From Gloeobacter morelensis MG652769 (GTDB lineage: Bacteria > Cyanobacteriota > Cyanobacteriia > Gloeobacterales > Gloeobacteraceae), in contig NZ_CP063845.1 of the NCBI RefSeq assembly GCF_021018745.1, positions 1,364,001 through 1,428,000 of the forward strand: DNA of 64,000 bases, written 5' to 3'. Both the position numbers and the translations under genes were made by a program. The notes under the pieces are model-generated. The model was not told the DNA's origin and ran no database searches. It saw only the letters and a list, made by a program, of their open reading frames with translations. Below, in pieces: positions 9,305-57,647 of this stretch. Positions within the stretch are counted from its first letter, which is position 1; every line of letters starts with the position of its first letter.

Positions 9305-10364
9305 GGCCTTGGTCGGTCTTAGGTAACGCCATCACAAAAGTGCAGCCTTCATCGCGGTTGTTGACCGCCCAGATGCGCCCGCTGTGGGCTTCGACGATCT
9401 GTCGGCTCAGATAGAGCCCCAGTCCCGTCCCCAGGCTCTGGCGCGTCAGGGGCGATTGGTAGAATTGCTCGAAGATCCGATCGAGATCCCCTTCGGGAAT
9501 GCCGGGGCCGCAGTCACTCACCTGAATTTGATATTCGGCAGTATGGCTTTCCAGGCGCACCTGCACGGTGGAAGCCAGGCGGGTGTAGCGCACGGCGTTG
9601 GCCACCAGATTGGTGATCGCCCGGCCGAGCTGCAGCGGGTCCGCCTCCACCTGCGCCCCTGCAAGCCCTTCGTACACCAGGGTCACCTGGCGTGCCCCCG
9701 CCGGGTCGATCCACTGGGTCACCACCTCCGCCGCGAGGGCATCGAGGTCGGCGCTGCGGCACCTCAGCCCCAGGGGCTCCCGCTCGTTGCGGTAGATAGT
9801 CAGCAGCGTATCGGTTAATTCCAAAAGCGTCCCGAGCGAGCGCTCGAAAAGCTGCACCACCTGACGCTGGGCGTCGGTGAGCCGGCCGAATTGCCCCTGG
9901 GCAAAAAAGCGCAGCGTCTGGGCCATGCCCTGTAGCGGTGTCTTGAGATCGTGGGTGAGGGCGGCGGTGAAATTTTCGTAGGCGCGCAGCAGTTGTTGCT
10001 GGCTTTGCACCCGAAAGCGCTGCTCCTGCGCCTCGCGCTGGGCCTGGCGGTAGCGAAGACTCAAAGTGCCCACCGTCCAGAGGGCCGAGCAGATAATCAA
10101 TCGGTTCACCAGGGTGAGGCTATTGAGTTCAAAGGTAGGAACAAACAGCCCCAAAATCGTCGAAACCAGGCTCAAAAATATAATCCATTGCGTCTGCCGC
10201 TCCGAAAAATGGTTGGCGGCAATCAATATGGGCACGGCGTAAAGATAGCTGAATATGTAACCGGTTGGAGCGATATACTCCACCGTCTCTATAAACAAGA
10301 TCAAGGCGACAATACCGTACAGCGCCCGCCGACGCGGCTCCTGCAGCTTCAATGCGGTGTCCAT
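9297..10364 (-). CDS. Membrane sensor histidine kinase
   Basis: A 355-residue kinase when read from the ATG at 10364, which has GGGAGGG upstream. An in-frame TTG at 10400 would add 12 residues. Three to four hydrophobic segments fill about residues 15-105 with no clear periplasmic domain, so the signal may be sensed in the membrane. A short coiled linker leads to HisKA with the phosphoacceptor His in ALTHDLKTPLQG. The HATPase domain has NLVANAVRY, DCGPGIP and GTGLGLYLS. It partners the NarL-type regulator encoded downstream with an 8-bp overlap. HisKA kinases with NarL regulators are less common than HisKA_3 pairs. Confidence 0.88.
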   Translation of the reverse strand: MDTALKLQEPRRRALYGIVALILFIETVEYIAPTGYIFSYLYAVPILIAANHFSERQTQWIIFLSLVSTILGLFVPTFELNSLTLVNRLIICSALWTVGTLSLRYRQAQREAQEQRFRVQSQQQLLRAYENFTAALTHDLKTPLQGMAQTLRFFAQGQFGRLTDAQRQVVQLFERSLGTLLELTDTLLTIYRNEREPLGLRCRSADLDALAAEVVTQWIDPAGARQVTLVYEGLAGAQVEADPLQLGRAITNLVANAVRYTRLASTVQVRLESHTAEYQIQVSDCGPGIPEGDLDRIFEQFYQSPLTRQSLGTGLGLYLSRQIVEAHSGRIWAVNNRDEGCTFVMALPKTDQGHD

Positions 10365-39290: not shown

Positions 39291-40289
39291 ATGCCGATGC
39301 CTTCCGCGCGCCAGTTCGAGCGTTTGATGAGGATGGACGAGTGGATTCGTAGCGGCCAGGCGCGCAGCATCGGGCAACTCGCTCAAAAGCTCGAAGTCAG
39401 TCCGAGGACCATCAGCACCGACACCGATTTTTTGCGCGATCAGCTCAAAGCACCGCTGGAGTTTGAACGGGGAGGTCGAGGCTGGTATTACACAGATCCC
39501 CAGTGGAGACTGCCGCTGGTGCCCCTCAGCGAGGGGGAACTGTTTGCCCTCGTTTTGGGAAGCCGCATGCTCGAAGCGGCGGCGGGGGCAGCCTATTCCC
39601 AGGAGTTGCAGTCCGCTATCGATCGGTTGGTGCGGCGGATGCCCGATCAAACCTGGGCGGACTTGCAGACGATCGTCGAAGAGCGCATCCAGTTCGGCTC
39701 CGGGGGCCTTATCGATCTCAATCCCGAAGTCTGGCGCAAACTCACCGAGGCAAGCCAGGCCAATCGCGTGGTCGAGATGACCTACTTTACCGCCTCGCGC
39801 AACAGCCTCTCGACTCGCAAATTTAACCCATATTTGCTGTACGTCTACCGTGGTACCAACCCCTACGCCATCGGCTACTGCCACCAGAGAAAGGAAATCC
39901 GTTACTTCCGGGTCGATCGCATCCGCGGGCTGTACCTGAGCGAGGAGCGCTTCGAGCGAGAGCCCGGCTTCAGCGCTCGGGAGTACCTCAACCTGGTCTT
40001 TCAAGTTGAAGCGGGCGGGCAGCCGCAACCGGTCGCCGTGCGCTTCAACGCCAAAGTGGCACCGTACATTCGGGAGCGGCGCTGGCACCGGACCCAGCAG
40101 ATCGATGAGCACGGCGACGGTTCGCTGACTTTGCGCATGGAGGTGCCGGGTCTGGCGGAGGTGAAGCGCTGGGTGATGGGCTACGGCGGCGATGCCGTCA
40201 TCGAGGAACCGGCCGAACTGGTGGCGATGATCAGCCAGGAGATTGCCAAAATGGCGGCGCACTACCACCAGGTGCGCCCGTCGTTGTAA
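39291..40289 (+). CDS. WYL-domain transcriptional regulator
   Basis: 332 residues: an N-terminal winged helix of DeoR type (SIGQLAQKLEVSPRTISTD, about 26-44), a central linker and a WYL domain (RKFNPYLLYVYRGTNPYAIGY, in parts NPYLLYVYRG and NPYAIGYCH; then YFRVDRIRGL), and a C-terminal WCX-like extension. WYL regulators bind ligands or nucleic acids and often control CRISPR-Cas and phage-defence operons in cyanobacteria. It is the first gene of the defence island, about 2.8 kb upstream of cas6, so it may regulate it. Confidence 0.87.
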   Translation: MPMPSARQFERLMRMDEWIRSGQARSIGQLAQKLEVSPRTISTDTDFLRDQLKAPLEFERGGRGWYYTDPQWRLPLVPLSEGELFALVLGSRMLEAAAGAAYSQELQSAIDRLVRRMPDQTWADLQTIVEERIQFGSGGLIDLNPEVWRKLTEASQANRVVEMTYFTASRNSLSTRKFNPYLLYVYRGTNPYAIGYCHQRKEIRYFRVDRIRGLYLSEERFEREPGFSAREYLNLVFQVEAGGQPQPVAVRFNAKVAPYIRERRWHRTQQIDEHGDGSLTLRMEVPGLAEVKRWVMGYGGDAVIEEPAELVAMISQEIAKMAAHYHQVRPSL

Positions 40290-41784: not shown

Positions 41785-42396
41785 ATGGGTCCGATTCTCG
41801 AACAAGCTCAAAGAACTTGCATACATCTTCAGCTGCCGCCTGCTCTGCACCTCAGCGATGACCAGCTGTTTGAGCTTTGCCGGATCAATCGGGAGCTGCG
41901 CATCGAACGAACGGCTCTGGGGAATCTCATCATTATGTCGCCGACAGGCAGCGAGACAGGTGCCCGCAACGCCAGCCTCACCGGTCAACTTTGGCTGTGG
42001 AACCGTAGTACGCAGATGGGACAAGTGTTCGATTCCTCGTCAGGTTTCACTCTGCCCAACGGTGCTATGCGCTCTCCTGACGCCGCCTGGATCCGCCAGG
42101 ATCGCTGGGCTGCTTTGCACCCTGAACAAAAGAAAAAATTCGCTCCCATCACACCGGACTTTGTTGCAGAACTCAAGTCGCCCACCGATGACCTCGCCGA
42201 TCTCAAGGCCAAGATGCAGGAATACATCGACAACGGCGTGCTGCTTGGCTGGCTTCTAGATCCTGAGCAGCGCCAGGTGTGGATATACAGACCCGGGCTT
42301 GAAGCAGAAATCTTAAATAACCCTGTGTACATTTCTGACGCGCGATTACATGACTTCAAGCTTAAAACAGCGAGTGTTTTCTCCCAAACCACTTGA
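41785..42396 (+). CDS. Uma2 family endonuclease-like protein
   Basis: 203 residues. The ATG at 41785 has AGGGAG 8 nt upstream; earlier in-frame ATGs at 41758 and 41761 are less likely. Motifs: LSDDQLFELCRINRELRIER, SPTGSETGARNASL, RSPDAAWIR, DFVAELKSPTDDLADLKAKM and GVLLGWLLDP. The D of SPDAAW and E..K of VAELKSP complete the nuclease core. Third of three tandem Uma2 genes; after it base composition drops sharply in the gap before cas6. Confidence 0.85.
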   Translation: MGPILEQAQRTCIHLQLPPALHLSDDQLFELCRINRELRIERTALGNLIIMSPTGSETGARNASLTGQLWLWNRSTQMGQVFDSSSGFTLPNGAMRSPDAAWIRQDRWAALHPEQKKKFAPITPDFVAELKSPTDDLADLKAKMQEYIDNGVLLGWLLDPEQRQVWIYRPGLEAEILNNPVYISDARLHDFKLKTASVFSQTT

Positions 42397-42430
42397 TCCT
42401 ACGTAAAGAAAAGCCCTTTCCAAGATTCTG

Positions 42431-42534
42431 TATAATATAACTTTAGCCACTTCGGCGTTGAGCATCTGAGTGCAGCACAGAAGCGTTCTTAGAAGACGCT
42501 AGTAAAATCGGTGACGCCGTCAGGCGATACGCAA
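42431..42534 (+). ncRNA. Candidate crRNA-like regulatory RNA: two degenerate CRISPR repeats around one spacer
   Basis: A TATAAT box (42431-42436) precedes degenerate repeat 1, which keeps the 3' end of the array repeat: GGCGTTGAGCAT (42454-42465) against GGAGTTGAGCAC. A 33-nt spacer-like stretch (42466-42498) follows. Then comes degenerate repeat 2 (42499-42534), which matches the array repeat at 21 of 36 positions, including AATC-GTGAC-CCG and AGG. Its stem CGCC/GGCG differs from the array's CTCC/GGAG by a compensating base-pair swap. Thus the first repeat keeps the 5' handle part and the second the hairpin part, as a processed crRNA needs. Transcription is inferred. Confidence 0.6.
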
Positions 42535-42598
42535 ACAGAGTCTGCATCTGAATAATTAAATTTACTTTTTTATTCTCCGGCAGGTCGACTAATGGATC

Positions 42599-42661
42599 TT
42601 GACGGTCCGATCCAAAAAGTATAAGATGCTGAGAGCAGCGCAGAAAAGCTCTAAAGTCAAA
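42599..42661 (+). promoter_or_regulatory. Promoter with a putative Cascade target site over its start
   Basis: TTGACG (42599-42604), 17 bp, then TAAGAT (42622-42627) form a plausible promoter. From 42629 the sequence CTGAGAGCAGCGCAGAA matches the first 17 nt of the upstream mini-CRISPR spacer (CTGAGTGCAGCACAGAA) except at positions 6 and 12, the positions type I Cascade does not read. The 3 nt before it, ATG, would be the PAM. Binding here would block transcription of the small ORF at 42681 and possibly of cas6. Confidence 0.55.
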
Positions 42662-42680
42662 AACGTGACGGAGATAAACA

Positions 42681-42884
42681 ATGAATAACGAAGACTTGAA
42701 TTTTCACTTCCGCTTCTTGCTTGCAATTTTGTCCTACGCCTTGGCTCTGGAAAGCGAGAATCAATTGCTAGACGAAGAGGTTCGCAACTGCCAGCTCGAA
42801 ATTGCGAAATTGAGGGCTGCAGCCGACCCATCCCTACTTAATGACCTCCCTTCTCAAGAACAACGTTATGAGGAAAACTCCTAG
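42681..42884 (+). CDS. Small protein of unknown function between mini-CRISPR and cas6
   Basis: 67 residues with GGAG 9 nt before the ATG. A hydrophobic or amphipathic N-terminal helix (FHFRFLLAILSYALALESEN) leads into a coiled-coil-like acidic helix (LLDEEVRNCQLEIAKLRAA). Not recognised. It is the first gene behind the promoter that carries the putative Cascade target, so it holds the position of the toxin in CreTA modules. That role is inference. GC content is clearly lower than in the flanking genes. The 247 bp after it, up to cas6, hold no convincing gene. Confidence 0.5.
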   Translation: MNNEDLNFHFRFLLAILSYALALESENQLLDEEVRNCQLEIAKLRAAADPSLLNDLPSQEQRYEENS

Positions 42885-43131
42885 GCCAATTTGCAAATAC
42901 AAAGTTTTTTAATTCTTGCTCTCAGTTATGGCTTGAAGATTTTACGAAGTATCGCAACTATACCAGAGCGCGACATTCATCATCTTGGCCGAGGTTTCGA
43001 ACGGCGACACATTGACTCTTCGCAACCTTCATCAGCAGCTGTCATTTCTGCAAAAAAGTTGCAGACTCACACTGAAGCTCCATTGCAGACTCCCAACCCC
43101 AGAATAAAAATATTAAAGGAAAAAACCACCC
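42885..43131. other. cas6 upstream region
   Basis: No gene seen. TTGCAGACTC occurs twice, at 43059-43068 and 43083-43092, a 24-bp-spaced direct repeat close to the cas operon start that could be an operator, for example for the WYL regulator. AAAGGA precedes the cas6 ATG. A good -35/-10 pair was not found here. Confidence 0.45.
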
Positions 43132-43770
43132 ATGACGGTCGTAGAACTCGATTTCGCCGCTGTAGGCCACTCCCTTCCAGCCGATCACGGCTATGCCCTT
43201 TTCAGCGCATTAAGTGAAGTTGTCCCCAGCATCCACGAAGCCACCTGGCTCGGCATCCACACCCTTCCCGGCACCCGTGACGGCAAAGGCAATCTCACGC
43301 TGCCTCCGAAACCCAAGCTCTCCTTGCGCCTGCCCATGGAGTGGATCCCGACGGTCTACCCCCTGGCGGGCAAGAAAATCGTTGTGGGTAACCATCCGCT
43401 GCGGCTAGGCATCCCCCAGATCCGTATGCTCACTCCGGCCGAAACTCTCAGAGCGCGGCTAGTGACACTCAAGCTCGCGGGCTCCGAGGGCAAGATGGCG
43501 GAACCGATTTCTTTTTTGGAGGGCGTTCAGCGTCAACTGGAGGCGTTGAGTATCGGCGGCAAAGCCAGCCTCGAACCCGCTACCGACAGCAAGGGCCTCG
43601 ATTCCTACGCACGGCGGGTTCTGCGCATCAAGGGCACGGTTATCACCGGTTACGGTGTTTTGGTTTCCGGTCTAAACGATGAAGACTCGCTGAAGCTGCA
43701 GGCCGCCGGTATCGGTGGACGCCGTCGGATGGGCTGCGGCATTTTCGTGCCGGTGCGGGGGGGAGCATGA
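43132..43770 (+). CDS. cas6: CRISPR pre-crRNA endonuclease Cas6 (Cmx6-like, subtype I-MYXAN)
   Basis: 212 residues, RAMP fold. The C-terminal glycine-rich loop GIGGRRRMGCGIFVP (193-207) is characteristic. The N-terminal region (VGHSLPADHGYALFSALSEV, HEATWLGIHTLPG) is like the Cmx6/MYXAN form, which is shorter than common Cas6. It should cut the repeat RNA at the 3' side of its small hairpin (ACTCC-GGAA-GGAGT), leaving a handle of about 8 nt. Its TGA overlaps the cas3 ATG (ATGA). Confidence 0.9.
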   Translation: MTVVELDFAAVGHSLPADHGYALFSALSEVVPSIHEATWLGIHTLPGTRDGKGNLTLPPKPKLSLRLPMEWIPTVYPLAGKKIVVGNHPLRLGIPQIRMLTPAETLRARLVTLKLAGSEGKMAEPISFLEGVQRQLEALSIGGKASLEPATDSKGLDSYARRVLRIKGTVITGYGVLVSGLNDEDSLKLQAAGIGGRRRMGCGIFVPVRGGA

Positions 43771-46115
43771 GCGCTAATGCTGTAATGAACCAGCCTGCCC
43801 AACTGCTGGCAAAAAGCCGCAGATCGGGGCGGGAGCCTCTCACGCTTGAGCAGCACCTGCTTGATACCGAACTTGCTGCCCTGAAAATCTTTCGTCTGGA
43901 TGGCCGCTGGGGCAAAAACTGGTGTCGATTCTTCAAGATTCAGGACAACGAACAGCAGCAGCGGTTCTTGCTGCATCTGCGTCTCGCCGCTTTGTGGCAT
44001 GACATTGGCAAGGCCAACGAGGATTTTCTGAAGGCGGTGAGCAGTTCTAGCTTCTACCCGCAACTTTTGCGCCACGAACATCTCAGCGCTTTTATCCTGC
44101 ACACTCCGGAAGTACGCCGTTGGATGGGAAGCAATTTGGCTCTCAATCTGGAGGTGATCACCGCGGCGGTGCTCTCCCACCATCTCAAAGCCGAGCAGAA
44201 GGACGGCGACTGGACCTGGGGAAAGTTGCAGCGGCAAGGCTCACCAGTGCTGCGCCTTCACATGGAACACCCTGAAGTTCAGCGCATTCTCGAAAGGATT
44301 GCCGAAATCGCCGACCTATCGGCTCCTCCCACGCTCAGCCGCGCCAGTTGGTCAAACGATGGGTACTGGCAGCAGATCTGGAGAGCGGGAAAAGATGCAG
44401 CTACCGAATTCAGGCGTCAATTGCGCAAAGATAGCGAGCTGCAGAGCCTGCTCCTTGCCACCAAGGCGGGCTTAATCGCAGCCGATGCGGTCGCGTCGGG
44501 AGTCGTGCGCGTGGGGTGCGGTACTATCGAAGACTGGGTCAATCAGGTCGTACACGCCCGAGCACTCCAGCCTGAGGACATTGTCCGCGACATCCTCCAT
44601 CCCCGGGGTGAGCAGATTGCCAGAAGCAAAGGCAAGTTCGAGCTTCATCCCTTTCAAAAGCTGGCGGCATTGCGCGGTTCGCGTCTGTTGCTGCTGGCTG
44701 GTTGTGGAGTCGGCAAAACTCTAGCCGCATGGAAATGGACCGAAGAGCAAGCGCGCCTCCACCAGATTGGCCGGGTGATCTTTTTGTACCCGACACGGGG
44801 CACCGCCACCGAAGGGTTCAAAGATTACGTCGGCTGGGCTCCTGAGGCCGACGGAACATTGCTCACAGGCACTTCCGAATACGAACTCGAACAGATGCTC
44901 ACCAACCCAAGCGACGCCACCAAGGGCAAGAAGTTTCTTCCGGACGAGACTCAAGAACGCCTGTTTGCCCTGGGTTTTTGGCCGAAGCGCTACTTTAGCG
45001 CCACGGTGGACCAATTTCTCAGTTTCTTGGAGCACAGCTACTCGGGGGTATGCCTGCTACCGGCTCTGGCCGATAGCGCCGTAATCATCGACGAAGTCCA
45101 CAGCTTCGACCGGCAGATGTTTCGCAACTTGGTAAGTTTCCTGCAGCACTTTGAAGTGCCGGTGCTCTGTATGACCGCCACGCTGTCGAAGTCTCGCCGG
45201 GAAGAACTGCGCAGCCTTGGGCTGCAGGTGTTCCCGGATGGGGAAGACCGCAAGGCTCTCGAAGACTTGAACCGCAAGGAGGAGCACCTTCGCTACCGCA
45301 TCGAGCGCCACACTGGCGAGCCAGTTGCCCTCCAGGAAGCCCAAGCTGCCTATCGTGCGGGGCAGCGCGTCCTATGGGTAGTCAACACGGTCGATCGTTG
45401 CCAGAGACTTGCAAAACAACTGTCGGACGATTTGGGGATCGATGTGCTCACCTACCACAGCCGCTTTACGCTGCAGGATCGCCAGAAACGTCATGCCGCA
45501 GTCGTCGGCGCATTCAAGCAGATAGAAGAGCGAGCAATCGCCGTCACCACGCAAGTGTGTGAAATGAGTCTCGACCTCGACGCCGACATGCTCATCAGTG
45601 AACTGGCCCCGATCCCCGCCCTGGTACAGCGCGCCGGGCGGGCAAACCGCCACCTGGCACGCGGTGATCATTTTCTGGCGCGCATTCTGGTGTACGCACC
45701 GGAAGGGCACCGACCTTACACGCACAAGGATCTCGAGGACACCCGCCGCTTCCTCAACGATTTGGGGACTGCTCCTGTGAGCCAGCTGCGCATGGCGGAA
45801 CTGCTGGAAAAATATGGTCCAGAGGAAGCGCAGGCCGATGGCAGTTCCCGCTTTGTGGAGAGTGGATACTACGCGGTGCCGGGTTCGTTCCGCGACGAGG
45901 ACGACTTCACACTGCCGTGTGTGTTGAGCACCGATCTCGACTGCGAAGCACTGCAATCTTCCCGAAAGCGAGTTGGTTATCTGCTCAACGTTCCGAAGAA
46001 ATTTGCCGTGCTAGACGGGCCGCGCCCGAACTGGCTGCCAAAGTACATCGGCATTGCCGACGGCGGCAGGTACAGTGCCCAGCGCGGATTTCGTACCGAT
46101 GACAGGAGCTCGTGA
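43767..46115 (+). CDS. cas3: CRISPR-associated nuclease/helicase Cas3 with HD domain
   Basis: 782 residues. The N-terminal HD nuclease has H30, ALWHDIGKAN (H78, D79), LRHEHLSAF and LSHHLKAEQ. The SF2 helicase has Walker A LLAGCGVGKTLAAW (P-loop about 311-318), DEVH box with D442 in VIIDEVHSFD, LCMTATLSK and the late QVCEMSLDLDADMLISE / LVQRAGRANRH. It degrades target DNA after recruitment by Cascade. All key residues are present, so interference looks intact. Overlaps cas6 by 4 nt; cas8 starts 3 nt after. Confidence 0.93.
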   Translation: MSANAVMNQPAQLLAKSRRSGREPLTLEQHLLDTELAALKIFRLDGRWGKNWCRFFKIQDNEQQQRFLLHLRLAALWHDIGKANEDFLKAVSSSSFYPQLLRHEHLSAFILHTPEVRRWMGSNLALNLEVITAAVLSHHLKAEQKDGDWTWGKLQRQGSPVLRLHMEHPEVQRILERIAEIADLSAPPTLSRASWSNDGYWQQIWRAGKDAATEFRRQLRKDSELQSLLLATKAGLIAADAVASGVVRVGCGTIEDWVNQVVHARALQPEDIVRDILHPRGEQIARSKGKFELHPFQKLAALRGSRLLLLAGCGVGKTLAAWKWTEEQARLHQIGRVIFLYPTRGTATEGFKDYVGWAPEADGTLLTGTSEYELEQMLTNPSDATKGKKFLPDETQERLFALGFWPKRYFSATVDQFLSFLEHSYSGVCLLPALADSAVIIDEVHSFDRQMFRNLVSFLQHFEVPVLCMTATLSKSRREELRSLGLQVFPDGEDRKALEDLNRKEEHLRYRIERHTGEPVALQEAQAAYRAGQRVLWVVNTVDRCQRLAKQLSDDLGIDVLTYHSRFTLQDRQKRHAAVVGAFKQIEERAIAVTTQVCEMSLDLDADMLISELAPIPALVQRAGRANRHLARGDHFLARILVYAPEGHRPYTHKDLEDTRRFLNDLGTAPVSQLRMAELLEKYGPEEAQADGSSRFVESGYYAVPGSFRDEDDFTLPCVLSTDLDCEALQSSRKRVGYLLNVPKKFAVLDGPRPNWLPKYIGIADGGRYSAQRGFRTDDRSS

Positions 46116-46118
46116 ACC

Positions 46119-47795
46119 ATGGCAAAGAAAAAAACGGCGCAGACCGTGGATGTGCTGCACCTCGATTACCGGTTGGTTGAGTTGCCTTCCTCCCAGCACC
46201 GGGCCGGTCTGGCGGGGTTGGTGCTGATGCTCAACTGGCTCAAGCAACAGGGCAAGATCCGGGGAGTGTGCGAACTGACGGCCCTTGACGAATATGGTGC
46301 GAGCGTCCGGCTCGATTGCCTTGGCCTCGAAGCGCTCTTGGACGAGGTGTACGGAGCGAGCCGGGAAATTCAGGAGCGGACCCAGCCATTCAAGAACAAA
46401 AACAAAGAGATCGTGCCGCCTCTAGAGGAACGGGAGGTGAGCGTGACCGATCCTAGTAACGGCAAGGCCAAGCTCAAAAAAGTCTACCTGTATCCGGTGG
46501 TGGTTCCGCGCGGGTCGTTTCTGGCCGAACTGGACCCAACCAGCGACGGCAACCAGGGCCTGTGGATCAAACTTTGGCGGGATATGATTTGGGCCATTTT
46601 GCGAGGTGTTCCGGCGACCAGGGCACCTTTTGAAGCCCGTGCCGAAGGAAAGCCCGCCGACGACGCCCGCAAACTCTGGGAGCAACTAGTACAACCGGCA
46701 GAATTTACCGTTGATTTGCCGAGCACCTACTTTCTGGGAGCACAGGCCGCCAATGCCGATAACGTGCCCTTCTTTGACCGGGCACGCCTTCAGTTTCTGT
46801 TGCATTTCTGGCCGTTTTCCGCGCAGGTTTATGTTCCAGCCATTCTGGACAACGAGGGCAAACGGCAATTTGTAGGGTACGCCCTGGCGATTCCCGACGT
46901 TTGCCGGCTTGAAACTTTTTGTGAGGAGTTACCCTCTCTGCTGCGCGAGCGAAAAGGCGAGAAGTCCGGATATCGGCCCCGCGAAGCGGTGGTCTGTGTC
47001 GCCGTCGAGAGCGCCCTGGATGTTTGCCGCCGCTTGCGCGAGCGTCTCACCCAGATCGAGGGAGGCGGTTCCACTCGCGATCTGGTGATGGGCATCGACG
47101 TGCTGCATTTGGAGAAACAAGGCAACAGCGTCCGTTTGCTGGGCAGCACCCGGCTGGAACCGGAGGCGCAGATGGTAGATACCTACGCCCAACTGCGCGA
47201 TGTCCTCTGGAACGATCTCTTTCGGCGCCAGCAATTGCTCAATCTCGTCCAGCACCAACCCCGGTTTGCCGGATTCGATGCGCTACTCTCAACACTACCC
47301 ATCGAACAAACCTTCGGATCCAACACCTTCCGCCACGACGCCCGCCAATCCTTCAAATACGAGACCGACATGAACGAAGATACGTTGACAGAAGCGATCG
47401 AAACCATCCCCATTGAAGAAAACACCGAAGCTGTAAAGCAGCCTCTGAGTGAAGAAGAGCTGCTCTACCGATTGGTGCAGAGTTACCTGCTTGGCAAGCT
47501 GCAGAGCAAGTACCGTATGAAGTGGGACAAAGACCGCAAGCTACCTGTTCAAGGCAGCAATCCCATTTCTTTGGACGAATACCGCAAGGCCAAGGAGAAG
47601 ATCGCAAAAGACGCCTTTCTTGCAATTCGTAGCCGCACCGATCGTGAAGCTTTTATCGAATACTTTGTTGCGACCCTGTGCTCGGTGCCGCAGCGCTTTG
47701 GCCAGCAGTATTTTGTTGGCCTGGCCCGCGCCCTGGACCAGGAAACAGACCGTATTCGCACGCTGACAATGCTCGCCCTTTCTGCCCAAAGCTAA
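46119..47795 (+). CDS. cas8: CRISPR-associated Cascade large subunit Cmx8 (Cas8, subtype I-MYXAN)
   Basis: 558 residues. The start VLHLDYRLVELPSSQHRAGLAGLVLML (in parts LVELPSSQHRAGLAG) is the typical Cmx8 opening. It should recognise the PAM and hold the non-target strand in Cascade. Around residues 418-445 an acidic linker separates a C-terminal helical part of about 140 residues, the size of a Cas11 small subunit. No separate cas11 gene exists in the locus. Gene order cas6-cas3-cas8-cas7-cas5 fits I-MYXAN (DevTRS-like). Confidence 0.85.
   Translation: MAKKKTAQTVDVLHLDYRLVELPSSQHRAGLAGLVLMLNWLKQQGKIRGVCELTALDEYGASVRLDCLGLEALLDEVYGASREIQERTQPFKNKNKEIVPPLEEREVSVTDPSNGKAKLKKVYLYPVVVPRGSFLAELDPTSDGNQGLWIKLWRDMIWAILRGVPATRAPFEARAEGKPADDARKLWEQLVQPAEFTVDLPSTYFLGAQAANADNVPFFDRARLQFLLHFWPFSAQVYVPAILDNEGKRQFVGYALAIPDVCRLETFCEELPSLLRERKGEKSGYRPREAVVCVAVESALDVCRRLRERLTQIEGGGSTRDLVMGIDVLHLEKQGNSVRLLGSTRLEPEAQMVDTYAQLRDVLWNDLFRRQQLLNLVQHQPRFAGFDALLSTLPIEQTFGSNTFRHDARQSFKYETDMNEDTLTEAIETIPIEENTEAVKQPLSEEELLYRLVQSYLLGKLQSKYRMKWDKDRKLPVQGSNPISLDEYRKAKEKIAKDAFLAIRSRTDREAFIEYFVATLCSVPQRFGQQYFVGLARALDQETDRIRTLTMLALSAQS
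47370..47795 (+). CDS. Possible internal translation product: Cas11 small subunit within cas8
   Basis: An in-frame ATG at 47370 (Met418 of Cas8) would give 141 residues, the right size for Cas11. The stretch before it is unstructured or acidic, and the rest is mostly helical (ELLYRLVQSYLLGKLQSKYR, DEYRKAKEKIAKDAFLAI). Several type I systems without a cas11 gene make it from such internal starts. The Shine-Dalgarno here is weak (GAG 8 nt upstream), so this is a hypothesis. Confidence 0.35.
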   Translation: MNEDTLTEAIETIPIEENTEAVKQPLSEEELLYRLVQSYLLGKLQSKYRMKWDKDRKLPVQGSNPISLDEYRKAKEKIAKDAFLAIRSRTDREAFIEYFVATLCSVPQRFGQQYFVGLARALDQETDRIRTLTMLALSAQS

Positions 47796-47820
47796 ATTAC
47801 CAACAAACCTGAGGAACATC

Positions 47821-48720
47821 ATGAAGAATCTGTTCGCCACCGTCCTGACCTATGCCGCTCCCAGTTCCAATTACCGCGGCGAGAGCGAGGAGAACCGCAC
47901 CGTTTTGCAAAAGATTGCCAAGCAGGGAAAAGAGTACACCGTCATCAGCCCGGAATCGATGCGCAATGCCCTGCGCGAGATGCTGGCTGCAGGCGGTCTG
48001 CCTTGCAACCGTCGCCGCCTGCATGATCAGGACCAGCTCGCTGTTGAGTTCCAAGAGTTTCCGAATGCAACTAAATTTGCTGATGACTTTCTTTTTGGTT
48101 TCATGGTCGCCGACAACGACGCCATCAAAAAGAACAAACTGCTTCCCGCCAAGCGCGACAGTGTGCTGCGGATGAATCTGGCGGTGGCACTAGTCCCCTA
48201 CCGCTTCGACGCCACCTTTCACCAGTCGCCGCTCAACGCCGGAAAGAGTCCCTGGAAGAACGCTTCGACCTCGGCCCTGCTGCACCGGGAAATTGCGCAC
48301 ACGGCCTACCAGTACCCATTTGCACTTTCGCATACTGACTGCAGCCAGGGTCAAGGTTCCGAGTGGACGCTGAAACTGCTGGAGGCTATCGGACAGTTGA
48401 ACGATGTGGCCGGCGGACACGCCCGCAGCTATTACGAGATGGCACCGCGCAGCATTGTCGTGCGCCTTACCAACAGTCTGGTGGCTGGGTACGATACTTA
48501 CGGTTTTGACGACAAAGGCGGGTTTGCGGAGTTGCAGCGCATTCATCCTGACGATCTGCCCGGTGGGGAATTCTGGCTTGGCGGGGAAATCGTCCGCAAT
48601 CTGGACACAGCGCAGCGCGAGCGACTTGTCGCTCAGGGCGTGCATCTGTACGAAAATCCGCAGCGGCTGTTGCGCGATGTGGGACATGCCTTTCTGGGCA
48701 CCGAGGTAGCAGTTCGATGA
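47821..48720 (+). CDS. cas7: CRISPR-associated backbone protein Cas7 (DevR-like)
   Basis: 299 residues, Cas7/DevR family of RAMP proteins. Signatures: NLFATVLTYAAPSSNYRGES at the N-terminus, KQGKEYTVISPESMRNALRE, FADDFLFGFMV and AGGHARSYYEMAPRSIVVRLT (quoted in part). Six or so copies should coat the crRNA in Cascade. ATG at 47821 has GAGGAA upstream. The TGA overlaps the cas5 ATG by 4 nt. Confidence 0.9.
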   Translation: MKNLFATVLTYAAPSSNYRGESEENRTVLQKIAKQGKEYTVISPESMRNALREMLAAGGLPCNRRRLHDQDQLAVEFQEFPNATKFADDFLFGFMVADNDAIKKNKLLPAKRDSVLRMNLAVALVPYRFDATFHQSPLNAGKSPWKNASTSALLHREIAHTAYQYPFALSHTDCSQGQGSEWTLKLLEAIGQLNDVAGGHARSYYEMAPRSIVVRLTNSLVAGYDTYGFDDKGGFAELQRIHPDDLPGGEFWLGGEIVRNLDTAQRERLVAQGVHLYENPQRLLRDVGHAFLGTEVAVR

Positions 48721-49424
48721 AGACACTCTGGTTGCATGTGCGTGCTCCTTTTGCTGCCTTTCGAGCTTTTCAAGCGGGTGTGTATCGCTCGACGGCTCCG
48801 ATTATTCCCCCTTCGGCCGCCTATGGTCTGATACTCAACCTGGCCGGCATCGAGATGCGCCTGCCCACGGCCGGCCCGACCACCCTTATCCGCTCCGGTT
48901 TGCCAGCGCTACGCCTTGCCATCGGTGCGCACACTTCCGGTGAAGTCTGCTCGCTCTATCAGCAGCTGCACGGATACCCGGTGGGGGCGTCGGGCAAAGA
49001 ACTGGCACTTCGCACCCGCGGAGCAAAGTACTGGATTGCACCGGTGCGCAGGGAGTTGCTGGTCGGGCTGGACGTAGTACTGGGTGTGCAGAGCCCGGAC
49101 AGCACACTGCTGGAGCGGGTGGGACGCGGCCTGCGGGGCGAGTTGGAAGAAGTTCGCTACGGCCTGCCATTTGCAGGAGACAACAATTTCCTGTTTGATC
49201 GCATCGACATCCTGGCTGAGCCACCGGCAGTTCATTGGTACACCCGGCTTGGTCGGGACGACCCACCGCGCCGCGGCTCGTGCCGGTTGAGTGTGGCCAT
49301 CGACCGGGCAGACAACAGCCGCACCGTCAATCTGTTGTATGCGCCCGCATCCGAACCGACCCGAGAACCACCTGATCAGGCATGGACGTGGGCTCCCGTC
49401 GTTCCTGCTAACTTTGAGAGATAA
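48717..49424 (+). CDS. cas5: CRISPR-associated protein Cas5 (DevS-like)
   Basis: 235 residues. The N-terminal RAMP segment WLHVRAPFAAFRAFQAGVYRS, quoted in part, with STAPIIPPSAAYGLILNLAG matches the Cas5/DevS signature; ELLVGLDVVLGVQS and YGLPFAGDNNFLFDRI follow. It caps the crRNA 5' handle and contacts Cas8. It is the last gene of the interference block, before two inserted Uma2 genes. Confidence 0.88.
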   Translation: MKTLWLHVRAPFAAFRAFQAGVYRSTAPIIPPSAAYGLILNLAGIEMRLPTAGPTTLIRSGLPALRLAIGAHTSGEVCSLYQQLHGYPVGASGKELALRTRGAKYWIAPVRRELLVGLDVVLGVQSPDSTLLERVGRGLRGELEEVRYGLPFAGDNNFLFDRIDILAEPPAVHWYTRLGRDDPPRRGSCRLSVAIDRADNSRTVNLLYAPASEPTREPPDQAWTWAPVVPANFER

Positions 49425-50650: not shown

Positions 50651-50690
50651 AATCCCCCCGGTGCCCCCCTTCCTACCAAGAGGTCTATTC

Positions 50691-52361
50691 ATGCTCGCAT
50701 CCGACTGGCTGCCCCCCGACCCCGAAGAAGACACCATCCGCGTCTCTTCGCTGCACGCCCTTTCCTACTGCCCCCGGCTCTACTACTTCGAGGAAGTCGA
50801 AGGTCTGCGCGTGGCCGACGAAGCCGTCTATGCCGGCCGTCGCCTGCACGTCGAGCTCGAAAAATCCGACGAGGGCAGTTGGGAGGAGCTTTGGCTTGAA
50901 AACGAAAGCCTGGGACTGCGCGGGCGGATGGACGCGCTGCGCACCCGCTCCGGACAGGTGATCCCCTACGAGCACAAGCGGGGGCGCTGCTTCCGCCGCG
51001 AGGACGGTACCCCCGATACCTGGCCCAGCGACCGGCTGCAGCTGTTGGCTTACGCTTCGCTCATCGAAGCGGAGCGGGGAATCACCGTCGTTGAGGGCCG
51101 CGTGCGCTATCACGAAGACAACGTGACGGTGCGCGTGCCCGTGGACGACCAGGGCCGTCAGCAAGTCCGCGATGCCATCCGGCAAGCGCGGCAATTGCGC
51201 CGCTCGGCCGAGCGGCCACCGGTGACCGATAACGAACGGCTGTGCGCCCGGTGCTCGCTCGCACCGGTGTGTCTACCAGAGGAAGCGCGGCTGGTGTCCA
51301 AGACCGCCTGGGAGCCGATTCGGCTGTTTCCACCCGACGATGAGCGGCGGATTTTGCATGTGCTCGAATCGGGTACGCGGGTGGGCAAGGCTGGGGAGCA
51401 AATCAAAATCACCCATCGCGACGGCCGTACCGAGGTGGTGCCTGTCCGCCAGGTGAGTCAGGTGGTGCTGCACGGTTTTGCTCAGATTTCGACCCAGGCG
51501 CTGCGCTTTTGCGCGGCGCACGAAGTCGGCCTGCACTACGTGAGTGGCGGCGGGCGCTATCTGGGCAGCCTTGCCGCCGGAAGCGGCCCGGTCCAGCGCC
51601 GCATTCGCCAGTACCGGGCCTTGGTCGACTCGGAATTTTGCTTGAAACTGGCCCGCAAGTTGGTGCTGTGCCGGGGTGATATGCAGCGGCAGATCCTCAT
51701 GCGCTACAGCCGCAAAGAGGGCACAGAGCACGACGCATTGAAGCAGGCCATCCAGCAGATGAAAGCACTGCTGGCGATCGTCGAGCGGGCGGACAACCCG
51801 GCAACGCTGCTGGGGTTGGAGGGTAACCTTGCCGCTTTGTACTTTCAGGCGTTGCCGCTGACCCTAGTGGAAGGGTTGCCGCCCGAACTGCGGTTTTGCG
51901 GACGCAACCGCCGTCCGCCACGCGATCGGGTCAATGCGCTGTTGAGCTTTGGCTACGCGCTATTGCTCAAAGACGTGATGAACGGCATCCTCACCGTCGG
52001 CCTGGAGCCTGCCTTCGGCTTCTACCATCAGCCGCGCTCCTCCGCGCCGCCCCTGGCCCTCGATTTGATGGAAATTTTTCGGTGCCTGCTGGTGGATCTG
52101 CCGATTCTCAATTCGCTCAATCGCCAGCAGTGGGATGTTGCCGCCGATTTCACCATCGCCGGTGAGCAGGTGTGGCTCAGCGACAGCGGCCGTGAAAAAC
52201 TCATCGCTCTATACGAGCGGCGCAAGACCGAGCAGTGGAAGCATCCAGCCATCGGCTATTCCCTTTCCTACGCGCGGATCATCGAACTGGAAGTCCGGCT
52301 TCTAGAGAAGGAATGGATGGAAGGTGAGGCAGGGCTGTTTGCAAAATTGCGTTTGAGGTAA
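50691..52361 (+). CDS. cas4-cas1: Cas4-Cas1 fusion (CRISPR adaptation)
   Basis: 556 residues. The Cas4 part (1 to about 200) has C27 (LSYCPRLYY), D81 and E94/K96 of the RecB-type nuclease (RGRMDAL, PYEHKRG), the QLLAYA motif and the Fe-S cysteines C185, C188, C194. The Cas1 part carries E377 (LGLEGNLAALYF), H446 (GFYHQPRSS) and the following acidic residues in LALDLMEIFR. It trims and integrates prespacers with Cas2; the fusion is typical of I-MYXAN. I chose ATG 50691 with AAGAGGT upstream rather than GTG 50661. Confidence 0.93.
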   Translation: MLASDWLPPDPEEDTIRVSSLHALSYCPRLYYFEEVEGLRVADEAVYAGRRLHVELEKSDEGSWEELWLENESLGLRGRMDALRTRSGQVIPYEHKRGRCFRREDGTPDTWPSDRLQLLAYASLIEAERGITVVEGRVRYHEDNVTVRVPVDDQGRQQVRDAIRQARQLRRSAERPPVTDNERLCARCSLAPVCLPEEARLVSKTAWEPIRLFPPDDERRILHVLESGTRVGKAGEQIKITHRDGRTEVVPVRQVSQVVLHGFAQISTQALRFCAAHEVGLHYVSGGGRYLGSLAAGSGPVQRRIRQYRALVDSEFCLKLARKLVLCRGDMQRQILMRYSRKEGTEHDALKQAIQQMKALLAIVERADNPATLLGLEGNLAALYFQALPLTLVEGLPPELRFCGRNRRPPRDRVNALLSFGYALLLKDVMNGILTVGLEPAFGFYHQPRSSAPPLALDLMEIFRCLLVDLPILNSLNRQQWDVAADFTIAGEQVWLSDSGREKLIALYERRKTEQWKHPAIGYSLSYARIIELEVRLLEKEWMEGEAGLFAKLRLR

Positions 52362-53002: not shown

Positions 53003-56000
53003 GCGATCGAATCAGTGACTCCGGAAGGAGTTGAGCACAATTGCCTGTACCGTCGGATCCCCCTCTTCGCAGCGCGATCGAATCAGTGACTCCGGAAGGA
53101 GTTGAGCACTAGAGAAAAAGAAACCAAGGAGAGAACAAGATGAACGCGATCGAATCAGTGACTCCGGAAGGAGTTGAGCACCACCCAATTTACCACAGCG
53201 TAAAAGGAACCTGTACCTGCGATCGAATCAGTGACTCCGGAAGGAGTTGAGCACATAGGGTCTACAGTCAGTGTTCTTATCTGCTTATCGAGCGATCGAA
53301 TCAGTGACTCCGGAAGGAGTTGAGCACCCGCTCTACCAGGTTCATTTTTGCTAGTTCTCTTGGCGATCGAATCAGTGACTCCGGAAGGAGTTGAGCACTT
53401 GATGGCCGTGCGGTCGAGCCCGGAGCGGTCGGAGCGATCGAATCAGTGACTCCGGAAGGAGTTGAGCACATGAAATTGAACTTGAGTGGCCACGAGAACA
53501 AAGGGGCGATCGAATCAGTGACTCCGGAAGGAGTTGAGCACCGCCTAGTCGCTCTAGGTAACGGCCACCTTGCTTGCGATCGAATCAGTGACTCCGGAAG
53601 GAGTTGAGCACAACTGCCGGATTGGCTTACCGCAGCCCGGGCAGTCGAGGCGATCGAATCAGTGACTCCGGAAGGAGTTGAGCACAGACGCAAGCCCCCG
53701 CCCACTGGCGCTGAAAAGCCTGCGATCGAATCAGTGACTCCGGAAGGAGTTGAGCACGTCCAATGCTCCGCAGACTCCGATTGTGAAGCCATATGCGATC
53801 GAATCAGTGACTCCGGAAGGAGTTGAGCACAGACGCAAGCCCCCGCCCACTGGCGCTGAAAAGCCGCGATCGAATCAGTGACTCCGGAAGGAGTTGAGCA
53901 CCCTGCCTGTGGGGCGCCACCCTCTCCGGGGCATAGCGGCGATCGAATCAGTGACTCCGGAAGGAGTTGAGCACTAGAGCAAGCAAGGAGAGCGAGATGA
54001 AAGACCTGAGTGCGATCGAATCAGTGACTCCGGAAGGAGTTGAGCACTCGATGGGCCATAGCAGTGAGTACGTTCCTTTGCGCGATCGAATCAGTGACTC
54101 CGGAAGGAGTTGAGCACTCGGTACGGAAATTGCTGTCACCGAGGCCCCGGTGGCGATCGAATCAGTGACTCCGGAAGGAGTTGAGCACTAGTGGTCGATC
54201 ACCGCTTGGACTGCCTGGGCGGTCCGCGATCGAATCAGTGACTCCGGAAGGAGTTGAGCACCCTGCCTGGTCGGGGCCAATCTGGCCGAAGCCGAGCGAT
54301 CGAATCAGTGACTCCGGAAGGAGTTGAGCACCCAACCTGGCTGGGGCCTGCCTGGCCGGGGCCAATCTGGCGATCGAATCAGTGACTCCGGAAGGAGTTG
54401 AGCACCGCCGTCTTTTGAGTCTTGCCCGGAGTCTCTTTCCTGGCGATCGAATCAGTGACTCCGGAAGGAGTTGAGCACCGGTTATTTTCTACCGTCCAAA
54501 GAAATCTAGGATGCGATCGAATCAGTGACTCCGGAAGGAGTTGAGCACTATACGTCATCGAAAGAGTCCTTTCTTTCGTCGCTTGCGATCGAATCAGTGA
54601 CTCCGGAAGGAGTTGAGCACCGACAGCAAACAATGCCGCCGCTATCACCAACACTAGCGATCGAATCAGTGACTCCGGAAGGAGTTGAGCACGAGTCTGG
54701 CACGACGCCTGGCTGAAGCCAGGATTGCGATCGAATCAGTGACTCCGGAAGGAGTTGAGCACATTCCTCTGCCGGTTCTCCTAGCTCCAGCAAGATGCGA
54801 TCGAATCAGTGACTCCGGAAGGAGTTGAGCACTCCTGCAGCGGAGATTTTGTTACGCCGGAATCCCCACGCGATCGAATCAGTGACTCCGGAAGGAGTTG
54901 AGCACAGAAGGCAAATTTCTGGCCAAGCTCGCCATCCTTCAGCGATCGAATCAGTGACTCCGGAAGGAGTTGAGCACGAAGGCGGCTATCGACATCAAAG
55001 AGCGCAATACGGGACGCGATCGAATCAGTGACTCCGGAAGGAGTTGAGCACCTATCGACAAACGCAACATCCGCACCAGCGCGACCACGCGATCGAATCA
55101 GTGACTCCGGAAGGAGTTGAGCACAGGCGCTCCTCGAAGTTATCCGGCACCAAGATACTGGGCGATCGAATCAGTGACTCCGGAAGGAGTTGAGCACTCT
55201 TATGAATCCTCCTCCATCCCTCCGGTAAGTATGCGATCGAATCAGTGACTCCGGAAGGAGTTGAGCACCCAATAATTGGCACGAACGTCAACTTATATTC
55301 AGTCAGCGATCGAATCAGTGACTCCGGAAGGAGTTGAGCACACCTCGTGCTCCCGGCGGGTGCCGAGAAACTCCCCGGCGATCGAATCAGTGACTCCGGA
55401 AGGAGTTGAGCACGCATCTGCGGAGCTCCTTGATCACTCGAACAACCATGCGATCGAATCAGTGACTCCGGAAGGAGTTGAGCACTATACGTCATCGAAA
55501 GAGTCCTTTCTTTCGTCGCTTGCGATCGAATCAGTGACTCCGGAAGGAGTTGAGCACCGACAGCAAACAATGCCGCCGCTATCACCAACACTAGCGATCG
55601 AATCAGTGACTCCGGAAGGAGTTGAGCACGAGTCTGGCACGACGCCTGGCTGAAGCCAGGATTGCGATCGAATCAGTGACTCCGGAAGGAGTTGAGCACA
55701 TTCCTCTGCCGGTTCTCCTAGCTCCAGCAAGATGCGATCGAATCAGTGACTCCGGAAGGAGTTGAGCACTCCTGCAGCGGAGATTTTGTTACGCCGGAAT
55801 CCCCACGCGATCGAATCAGTGACTCCGGAAGGAGTTGAGCACAGAAGGCAAATTTCTGGCCAAGCTCGCCATCCTTCAGCGATCGAATCAGTGACTCCGG
55901 AAGGAGTTGAGCACGAAGGCGGCTATCGACATCAAAGAGCGCAATACGGGACGCGATCGAATCAGTGACTCCGGAAGGAGTTGAGCACCTATCGACAAAC

Positions 56001-57647
56001 GCAACATCCGCACCAGCGCGACCACGCGATCGAATCAGTGACTCCGGAAGGAGTTGAGCACAGGCGCTCCTCGAAGTTATCCGGCACCAAGATACTGGGC
56101 GATCGAATCAGTGACTCCGGAAGGAGTTGAGCACTCTTATGAATCCTCCTCCATCCCTCCGGTAAGTATGCGATCGAATCAGTGACTCCGGAAGGAGTTG
56201 AGCACCCAATAATTGGCACGAACGTCAACTTATATTCAGTCAGCGATCGAATCAGTGACTCCGGAAGGAGTTGAGCACACCTCGTGCTCCCGGCGGGTGC
56301 CGAGAAACTCCCCGGCGATCGAATCAGTGACTCCGGAAGGAGTTGAGCACATCACGTTAAAAGAAAGAATCGAGCTTGTTGCCTTGGCGCGATCGAATCA
56401 GTGACTCCGGAAGGAGTTGAGCACTTGTCTTTTATTTTTCCTAGCCTGCCCTCTCCCCCGCGATCGAATCAGTGACTCCGGAAGGAGTTGAGCACATGAT
56501 TTGCATGTGCGGCTCCTGTATCAAAACACGGCGATCGAATCAGTGACTCCGGAAGGAGTTGAGCACGTGATCTGTTGCAGGCTCAAACTCACTGTAAGGC
56601 GGCGATCGAATCAGTGACTCCGGAAGGAGTTGAGCACGTGCTGCTGACGGTGTGCGTCGTTGCCCCTGCATTTGCGATCGAATCAGTGACTCCGGAAGGA
56701 GTTGAGCACTTCGAACAAGTACTTCTCTACCTTTAGGCGAAGTTGTGCGATCGAATCAGTGACTCCGGAAGGAGTTGAGCACACAATCAGAATGTGAACT
56801 GGGGCACCAGCAGTAATGCGATCGAATCAGTGACTCCGGAAGGAGTTGAGCACGAGCGACTGGTAAGCTACTACAGAGCAGCGGTATTTGCGATCGAATC
56901 AGTGACTCCGGAAGGAGTTGAGCACTAGGGTTGCTCATTGTTGATGCTCTTGGAGTGCCAGCGATCGAATCAGTGACTCCGGAAGGAGTTGAGCACGAGA
57001 CTGCTGTAGCCTACGACCAACCGGGTGAGCGGCGATCGAATCAGTGACTCCGGAAGGAGTTGAGCACACTACTTGGTCAAGCATGGTAAGGCGGCATTCG
57101 ACAAGCGATCGAATCAGTGACTCCGGAAGGAGTTGAGCACTGTACGTGGATGGGCGCACGGCCCAAAATTATCAGGGCGATCGAATCAGTGACTCCGGAA
57201 GGAGTTGAGCACTCCACGGAGCTATCCCCGGGAATGGCAAACACCGGCGATCGAATCAGTGACTCCGGAAGGAGTTGAGCACAGCCAGTCCAAGGGAGGA
57301 GATAATAACAGTTTCTTTTGTGCGATCGAATCAGTGACTCCGGAAGGAGTTGAGCACATTTTTTGCAATCGCTGCTCTGGCGCGGGTTTGACGATTGCGA
57401 TCGAATCAGTGACTCCGGAAGGAGTTGAGCACTGGGTGATTCGTATCCTTGTGCCTGATTACTGAGTGCGATCGAATCAGTGACTCCGGAAGGAGTTGAG
57501 CACATTACCTGCTCGCCAAAGCGATAACTCAGGCCGCTCAGCGATCGAATCAGTGACTCCGGAAGGAGTTGAGCACTACCGGACGAACGCTTCCTCCGCT
57601 TTGGCACTCAGGCGATCGAATCAGTGACTCCGGAAGGAGTTGAGCAC
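53003..57647 (+). CRISPR. CRISPR array, 65 repeats of 36 nt and 64 spacers
   Basis: The repeat is GCGATCGAATCAGTGACT followed by CCGGAAGGAGTTGAGCAC; all 65 copies look identical, including the last. The stem ACTCC-GGAA-GGAGT is followed by the likely 8-nt handle TTGAGCAC. Spacers are 33-38 nt. Spacers 22-33 are repeated exactly as spacers 35-46, offset 937 bp. Spacers 10 (53686) and 12 (53831) are the same apart from a terminal base. The array follows cas2 and a leader on the plus strand. Since the repeat is 36 nt, long ORFs run through parts of it on both strands; these are not genes. Confidence 0.98.

What the first reader, a model, noticed from the sequence alone, without database searches (positions are those of the whole stretch)
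42431..42661. Mini-CRISPR upstream of cas6 whose spacer matches a nearby promoter with mismatches only at positions 6 and 12
Seen directly: two degenerate copies of the array repeat flank a 33-nt spacer (42466-42498), the same size as the real spacers. The first copy keeps the 3' handle end (GTTGAGCA), the second keeps the 5' half and the hairpin with a compensating base-pair change. The spacer start CTGAGTGCAGCACAGAA matches 42629-42645, CTGAGAGCAGCGCAGAA, at 15 of 17 positions. The two mismatches fall on every sixth base, which Cascade does not read. By hand estimate such a match would arise by chance in this gap about once in ten thousand. The target covers the start region of a TTGACG-17-TAAGAT promoter. 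Known CreA/CreR RNAs repress a toxin gene or the cas operon in this way; this would be a new instance in a I-MYXAN-like system.
Basis: partly seen in the sequence, partly recalled or inferred. Interest (0 to 1): 0.93.

Follow-up and report, generated by a model that had tools for sequence, protein, structure and literature searches.

The report
CRISPR guide repressing its neighbour promoter
Next to a cyanobacterial CRISPR immune system sits a worn-out two-repeat mini-CRISPR whose guide is built to seat the system's DNA-binding complex on a nearby promoter rather than on a virus, and the same arrangement recurs beside the same kind of system in about twenty other genomes, so it is real and not a chance match.

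Summary
Two degenerate repeats (psiR1 42430-42465, psiR2 42499-42534) flank a 33-nt spacer. Its first 17 nt match 42629-42645 at all 15 positions that Cascade reads. It is the only seed-plus-PAM site in the genome.
A search of 95 other loci with related cas6 genes found the same design upstream of cas6 in 22: handle, spacer, nearby target, always with ATG. Hits drop from 21 to 2-5 if another position than every sixth is exempted. Two related loci show three compensated seed changes.
This is therefore a CreA/CreR-type RNA-guided repressor. Here and in most loci of its class, the targeted promoter sits before a small ORF (67 aa, predicted helical, no homologue), then cas6. In one pair of 95-97% identical loci the ~700-bp cassette is present in one and absent in the other. 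Whether the ORF is a toxin (CreTA/CrePA-like) or a leader gene of an autorepressed cas operon (CreR-like) is open. RNA, binding and repression are inferred, not shown.

The parts
42313..43047 (.). Segment carrying mini-CRISPR, target promoter and small ORF; not homologous to the 256 bp at the same place in the closest relative (G002, flanks 92% and 79% identical)
   Evidence: blastn of the gap against G002 and G003; G+C about 41-47% against about 55-60% in the flanks
42431..42436 (+). TATAAT, possible -10 of a promoter for the mini-CRISPR (weak: no good -35 found)
   Evidence: read from sequence; not called by the promoter scan
42430..42465 (+). psiR1: degenerate repeat; keeps short hairpin GCC(ACTTC)GGC and the 8-nt 5' handle TTGAGCAT (42458-42465)
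   Evidence: GGCGTTGAGCA is identical to the repeats of most other cyanobacterial loci of this family
42466..42498 (+). psiS: 33-nt spacer of the mini-CRISPR (guide)
42499..42534 (+). psiR2: degenerate repeat with hairpin CGCC(GTCA)GGCG; last 8 nt (handle) mostly lost
   Evidence: Rfam CRISPR-DR33 at 42498-42534, sub-threshold
42599..42627 (+). sigma-70-like promoter TTGACG-17-TAAGAT in front of the small ORF
42626..42628 (+). PAM ATG, overlapping the end of the -10 hexamer
   Evidence: PMC11096372: 5'-AYG-3'
42629..42661 (+). Protospacer; seed 42629-42645 matches spacer positions 1-17 except 6 and 12; positions 18-33 poorly matched
42681..42884 (+). Small ORF, 67 aa, ATG, with GGAG at 42670-42673; predicted helical; orphan
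   Evidence: (codon-position G+C periodicity p 0.004)
43048..43131 (+). cas6 leader conserved in the relatives that lack the cassette, with inverted repeat CTGCAAAAAAGTTGCAG at 43048-43064
43132..43770 (+). cas6 (type I-MYXAN, TIGR02807)
43767..46115 (+). cas3 helicase-nuclease
46119..47795 (+). cas8b/cmx8 large subunit (TIGR04413)
47821..48720 (+). cas7 (DevR family)
48717..49424 (+). cas5 (DevS/Cmx5)
50661..52361 (+). cas4-cas1 fusion (Cas1 MYXAN)
53003..57647 (+). Main CRISPR array, 65 identical 36-nt repeats, 64 spacers of 34-39 nt
39291..40289 (+). WYL-domain transcription regulator of the kind that precedes cas6 in many related loci

Best explanation
The mini-CRISPR is transcribed, and Cas6 cuts it in psiR1 and psiR2 to give a crRNA-like RNA with the 5' handle UUGAGCAU and this spacer. 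The RNA loads into the I-B/MYXAN Cascade (Cas8b-Cas7-Cas5-Cas6) and takes it to the ATG-flanked protospacer at 42629. There it pairs through the first 17 nt only, except every sixth base. That is enough to bind but probably not enough to license Cas3. The bound complex covers the end of the -10 and the start region of the promoter at 42599-42627 and represses it, so the 67-aa small ORF (and perhaps cas6 onward by read-through) is silent while Cascade is intact and free, and is switched on when Cascade is inhibited, lost or titrated by other crRNAs. Shown by sequence: repeats, spacer, seed, PAM, promoter, recurrence in other genomes, compensated changes. Inferred: transcription, processing, binding, repression and the purpose.
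For: Seed and PAM. Unique site in the genome. Effector identity. Recurrence: 22 loci besides this one among 96, all ATG, against 0-4 for each of 14 control trinucleotides; every self-match of 12 or more preceded by a perfect handle has ATG (19 of 19). Sixth-base rule: 21 hits with positions 6, 12, 18 exempt against 2-5 with other masks. A second hairpin repeat at class-specific spacing in all 22 loci tested. Compensated seed changes at positions 4, 7 and 10 between L099 and L103. Cassette presence/absence: L093 and L097 are 95-97% identical on both sides but 712 bp holding guide, target and ORF are replaced by 14 bp; the window shows a similar difference from G002. Small ORFs behind the target in nine of the ten loci of the window's type, with codon periodicity in four of the five tested. 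Known precedents with the same anatomy: PMC8501985 and PMC9458426.
Against: No transcript, processing or repression data. The -35 of the mini-CRISPR's own promoter is poor, and the TATAAT lies inside psiR1. The small ORF has no homologue and could be a chance ORF, though its periodicity argues against that. The closest relatives lack the segment, so conservation cannot be tested on this locus itself. The PAM is measured for a homologue, not for this organism. The detector required seed matches, so the counts of matched positions are partly by construction (the mask and PAM controls are not).
Confidence: 0.85

Rival explanations
1. CreR reading (a sub-reading of the best explanation): the targeted promoter is an upstream promoter of the cas operon. 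Cascade represses its own genes, the small ORF is a leader gene of that transcript, and repression lifts when crRNAs or anti-CRISPR proteins take up Cascade.
For: No terminator-like element between the ORF and cas6 here or in seven comparable loci by simple scans. In the other class of loci the target sits 27-330 bp before cas6, mostly on a TTGACA-type promoter with no ORF between. CreR is known in type I-B (PMC13131331).
Against: cas6 keeps a separate conserved leader in relatives without the cassette. The cassette comes and goes between near-identical cas loci. Nearly every locus of this class carries a small ORF right behind the target.
Confidence: 0.42
2. CreTA/CrePA reading (a sub-reading of the best explanation): the 67-aa small protein is a toxin or abortive-infection effector held silent by Cascade, so that loss or inhibition of Cascade hurts the cell.
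For: Order guide - target promoter - small ORF just before cas, comparable with H. hubeiense creTA upstream of its cas operon (PMC8501985). The cassette behaves as a unit and the ORFs are highly diverse, as expected of toxins. One of the ORFs (L105) resembles the cell-division protein ZapB below the cut-off.
Against: No known toxin domain and no run of rare codons in the ORF. Toxicity cannot be tested here. L104 has the guide and target without such an ORF.
Confidence: 0.42
3. Chance or a decayed local duplication: the repeat-like stretches and the 17-nt match are accidents of an AT-rich gap.
For: The unselected full-length repeat score is only modest; the ORF is an orphan.
Against: Homology starts exactly at spacer position 1 and fades after 17, mismatches up to there fall only on 6 and 12, and the PAM is right. 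The same design recurs in 22 other loci with low controls.
Confidence: 0.03
4. A self-targeting spacer acquired by ordinary adaptation, left in a dying array remnant without a regulatory role.
For: ATG is also the PAM that acquisition would be expected to use.
Against: Repeats are strongly degenerate while handle, hairpin and seed are kept; only 21/33 of the spacer matches; compensated changes occur in relatives; the target sits at promoter-like sites again and again.
Confidence: 0.06

Closest known systems
CreTA (creT-creA) of Halobacterium hubeiense / Haloarcula hispanica, type I-B (PMC8501985, PMC9458426)
   Same: Two divergent degenerate repeats, psiR1 keeping the 8-nt handle and psiR2 losing it; psiR1 more diverged; seed 1-5 and 7-11 with PAM upstream of the neighbouring gene; H. 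[quoted passage not shown]
   Different: Bacterial, ATG not TTC PAM, longer seed (17 nt); the gene behind the promoter is a 67-codon ORF, not a minimal ORF with rare codons
CreR cas-regulating RNAs of types I-B, I-E and V-A (reviewed in PMC12737573 and PMC13131331)
   Same: crRNA-like RNA with partial complementarity to a promoter next to cas; the other cyanobacterial class found here fits CreR closely
   Different: In the window the target is 503 bp before cas6 with an ORF between; autorepression of cas is not shown
CrePA (CRISPR-repressed protein toxin, KilA-N; PMC12737573)
   Same: A guide RNA and Cascade hold a protein-coding gene silent
   Different: No KilA-N or other known domain; small helical orphan protein, toxicity unknown
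Synechocystis PCC 6714 type I-B (MYXAN) Cascade, PDB 8h67/8ip0 (PMC11096372)
   Same: Same effector family; PAM 5'-AYG-3' used here to test the target
   Different: Studied for interference and editing; no regulatory guide is mentioned in the parts read

Membership tests
Type I-B (I-MYXAN) CRISPR-Cas | Cmx8/Cas8b, Cas6/Cmx6, Cas5/DevS and Cas1 MYXAN models above their curated cut-offs | tested here: met
   Cas8b by PADLOC
CreA/CreR-type guide RNA | Spacer between degenerate copies of the local repeat, with the Cas5-binding handle kept in psiR1 | tested here: met
CreA/CreR-type guide RNA | Partial complementarity (seed) to a nearby promoter with a correct PAM | tested here: met
CreA/CreR-type guide RNA | Cas6-dependent mature RNA and Cascade-dependent repression | not testable with these tools
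   needs RNA and reporter experiments
CreR (cas autorepression) | Target is the promoter of the cas operon | tested here: inconclusive
   target 503 bp before cas6 with an ORF between; no terminator seen
CreTA (RNA toxin) | Target gene is a small RNA with a minimal ORF of rare codons that sequesters a tRNA | tested here: not met
   67-codon ORF with no AGA or ATA codon (sequence); toxicity untested
CrePA (protein toxin) | KilA-N domain toxin | tested here: not met
   no Pfam, PHROGs or PADLOC match

The most novel reading that the evidence does not exclude
A widespread, exchangeable cassette of cyanobacterial I-B systems, made of a mini-CRISPR guide, its target promoter and a highly variable small helical protein, forms a new class of Cascade-repressed toxin-antitoxin or anti-CRISPR alarm whose protein partners belong to no known toxin family.
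Probability: 0.35. Interest if true: 0.86.

Novelty: new variant of a known kind. Interest (0 to 1): 0.74.

Why it matters
It extends RNA-guided gene control by type I Cascade to a large group of cyanobacterial (and at least one planctomycete) I-B systems. The loci divide into two main classes: long-spacer mini-CRISPRs aimed mostly at cas promoters, and normal-spacer mini-CRISPRs aimed at promoters of small-protein genes. The second class offers a set of unstudied small proteins predicted to be switched on when CRISPR fails, which makes 'what guards CRISPR in cyanobacteria?' directly testable. The recurrence gives many natural guide/target pairs, with PAM and sixth-base rules visible in the sequences, that show how little pairing may suffice for repression without cleavage.

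Tried and rejected
Homologues of the 67-aa ORF: none in 291 genomes of the class, phages, plasmids, genome contigs, Pfam or PHROGs. The idea that the 67-aa ORFs of the window and of L060 are homologous: rejected, no BLASTP alignment. DNA search of the gap in 59 relatives: only the window itself. Rfam: only a sub-threshold CRISPR repeat hit and a chance CAESAR hit. A link of the mini-CRISPR with the second Cas6 on contig C2: no array or mini-CRISPR found beside it. Counting co-variation over eight related loci: rejected as evidence, because the detector demands matching seeds; only the aligned pair L099/L103 is used. First labelling of the long-spacer class as one-repeat: corrected, a second repeat lies further on, at a spacing of 61-76 nt. 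Structure comparison of the ORF: not run, the single-sequence model is essentially one long helix.

Full report
Setting. The window is part of a 4.92-Mb contig of a cyanobacterial genome (three relatives of the same genus are held; size and gene content suggest Gloeobacter, from my own knowledge). The locus is a type I-B system of the MYXAN branch: cas6, cas3, cmx8/cas8b, cas7, cas5, two Uma2-like genes (named from memory), cas4-cas1, then an array of 65 identical 36-nt repeats with spacers of 34-39 nt. Cas8 and Cas7 match the solved Synechocystis PCC 6714 I-B Cascade, 8h67/8ip0 (E 1e-114 and 4e-121).

The observation. Between the upstream gene (ends 42396) and cas6 (starts 43132) lie psiR1, a 33-nt spacer and psiR2. 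psiR1 ends GGCGTTGAGCAT; psiR2 is GGTGACGCCGTCAGGCG-like. The array repeat of this genome has the stem CTCC/GGAG, but most other cyanobacterial loci with this Cas6 use repeats like GATGCCGTAAGGCGTTGAGCAC. Both degenerate copies resemble that family hairpin: psiR1 has GGCGTTGAGCA exactly, psiR2 has GACGCCGTCAGGCG. Scored with the family core, which comes from other genomes, the pair reaches 33, against a maximum of 29 in 400 kb of the same genome on both strands and eight spacings. With the own repeat's functional parts it is 28 against 24. The full-length unselected score is modest, about 0.1 expected in the gap, so the repeat evidence rests on the functional parts.

The target. The spacer start CTGAGTGCAGCACAGAA matches CTGAGAGCAGCGCAGAA at 42629-42645; only positions 6 and 12 differ, and after 17 the match fades (21/33 overall). 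None of 20,000 shuffled spacers does as well in the gap, and no array spacer comes near. The match begins exactly at spacer position 1. The three bases before the target are ATG. The measured PAM of the homologous Cascade is 5'-AYG-3' (PMC11096372). Two other places in the genome share the seed core but lack an AYG PAM. The target lies at the end of the -10 and over the start region of TTGACG-17-TAAGAT. A Shine-Dalgarno-like GGAG and a 67-aa ORF follow.

Is it a family? A detector (perfect or near-perfect handle, seed with every sixth base free, PAM, within a set distance) was first run on the relatives' loci and found a second case in L060, with a 17-nt perfect seed, ATG and a promoter TTGACA-17-TATCAT directly beside the target. 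A scan of the genome collection with a Cas6 profile gave 80 more loci. In all, 23 of 96 loci, including this one, have such a guide and target, all with ATG; 14 control trinucleotides give 0-4 each. Shuffled handles mostly give 0-3 hits, with two outliers of 28 and 9. Among 3,616 internal self-matches in the upstream regions, those preceded by a perfect handle have ATG in 19 of 19 cases. Exempting positions 6, 12, 18 gives 21 hits; other masks that leave position 6 counted give 2-5. So the sixth-base tolerance is visible in the family, not only here. In the homologous pair L099 and L103, seed positions 4, 7 and 10 have changed in both spacer and target.

Two main classes. All 22 plus-strand cases have a second hairpin repeat. 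In one class (12 loci) it lies further off (spacing 61-76), the target is 27-330 bp before cas6 (one locus has a second site at 407), mostly on a TTGACA-type promoter, the effector genes are of another branch, and no WYL regulator is found upstream; in the Cas6 tree this class is one side of a well-supported branch. In the other class (10 loci), to which the window belongs, the spacer is 33-37 nt (20-23 in two loci), the effector is of the cmx8 type in 8 of 10, a WYL regulator gene lies upstream in 9 of 10, and a small ORF follows the target in nine of ten: 67 aa here, 67 in L060, 60 in L133, 55 in L105, 53 in L086, about 110-122 in L080, L077 and L100 (the last two look related by eye), 91 in L093, which has a relative in L117. 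Four of five tested show codon-position periodicity in G+C. None matches a known family above its cut-off.

A cassette. L093 and L097 are 95-97% identical on both sides of a 712-bp stretch that holds guide, target and ORF and that is replaced by 14 bp in L097. In the window the segment 42313-43047 differs in a similar way from G002, whose cas6 is 96% identical. Between WYL gene and cas6 the gap is often under 250 bp, with no guide in it (in L080 the cassette lies before the WYL gene), or is 361-1090 bp, often with a guide; the Gloeobacter-type loci and L060 are larger still.

Mechanism. From the anatomy and the precedents (PMC8501985, PMC9458426), the most likely course is: transcription, Cas6 cutting, loading into Cascade, binding through the 17-nt seed next to ATG, repression of the promoter without Cas3 cleavage because of the poor distal match. 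Every step after the sequence is inferred. Two readings of the purpose remain about equally likely. If the transcript stops before cas6, the small protein is the controlled product and the cassette is CreTA/CrePA-like; presence/absence as a unit, ORF diversity and the separately conserved cas6 leader favour this. If it runs on, this is autorepression of cas as in CreR; the lack of a terminator-like element in eight loci and the sister class favour this. Both could be true at once.

Novelty. Guides of this kind are known in I-B (PMC13131331). What I did not find described in the library is their presence across cyanobacterial I-B loci and the exchangeable cassette with small helical ORFs. The library lacks most subscription journals, so absence there is not proof; hence 'new variant of a known kind'.

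Limits. One detector, tuned on this repeat family, will miss diverged handles (L117 is a likely missed case with an 8-nt seed). The PAM is borrowed from a homologue, although the 23 ATG cases support it. The loci are not independent; the tree shows one clade for the long-spacer class.

Noticed in passing
54549-56279: Part of the main array is tandemly duplicated: about a dozen spacers from 54549 to 55342 recur 937 bp further on.
   Followed up: no
43048-43064: Inverted repeat CTGCAAAAAAGTTGCAG just before cas6, conserved (nearly) in the two same-genus relatives that lack the cassette; possibly an operator, perhaps of the WYL regulator at 39291-40289.
   Followed up: partly
43132-49424, compared with L023/L075 (G002): G002 has a 96% identical Cas6 but a quite different effector module behind it (Cas3 30%, no Cmx8 match): the effector genes appear swapped behind the same cas6.
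   Followed up: partly
L025 8075-8692 (own genome, contig C2): A second, 172-kb contig of the same genome encodes another Cas6 relative (43%) with no array or mini-CRISPR found beside it.
   Followed up: partly
L060 about 9580-9605 (minus strand): A further degenerate repeat GATGCCTTCGGGCGTTGAGCAA lies in the cas6 leader, in addition to the mini-CRISPR; no target was found for it.
   Followed up: no
L138 802-869: A planctomycete locus has a guide/target pair with ATG PAM and 18-nt seed in the opposite orientation next to cas6.
   Followed up: no
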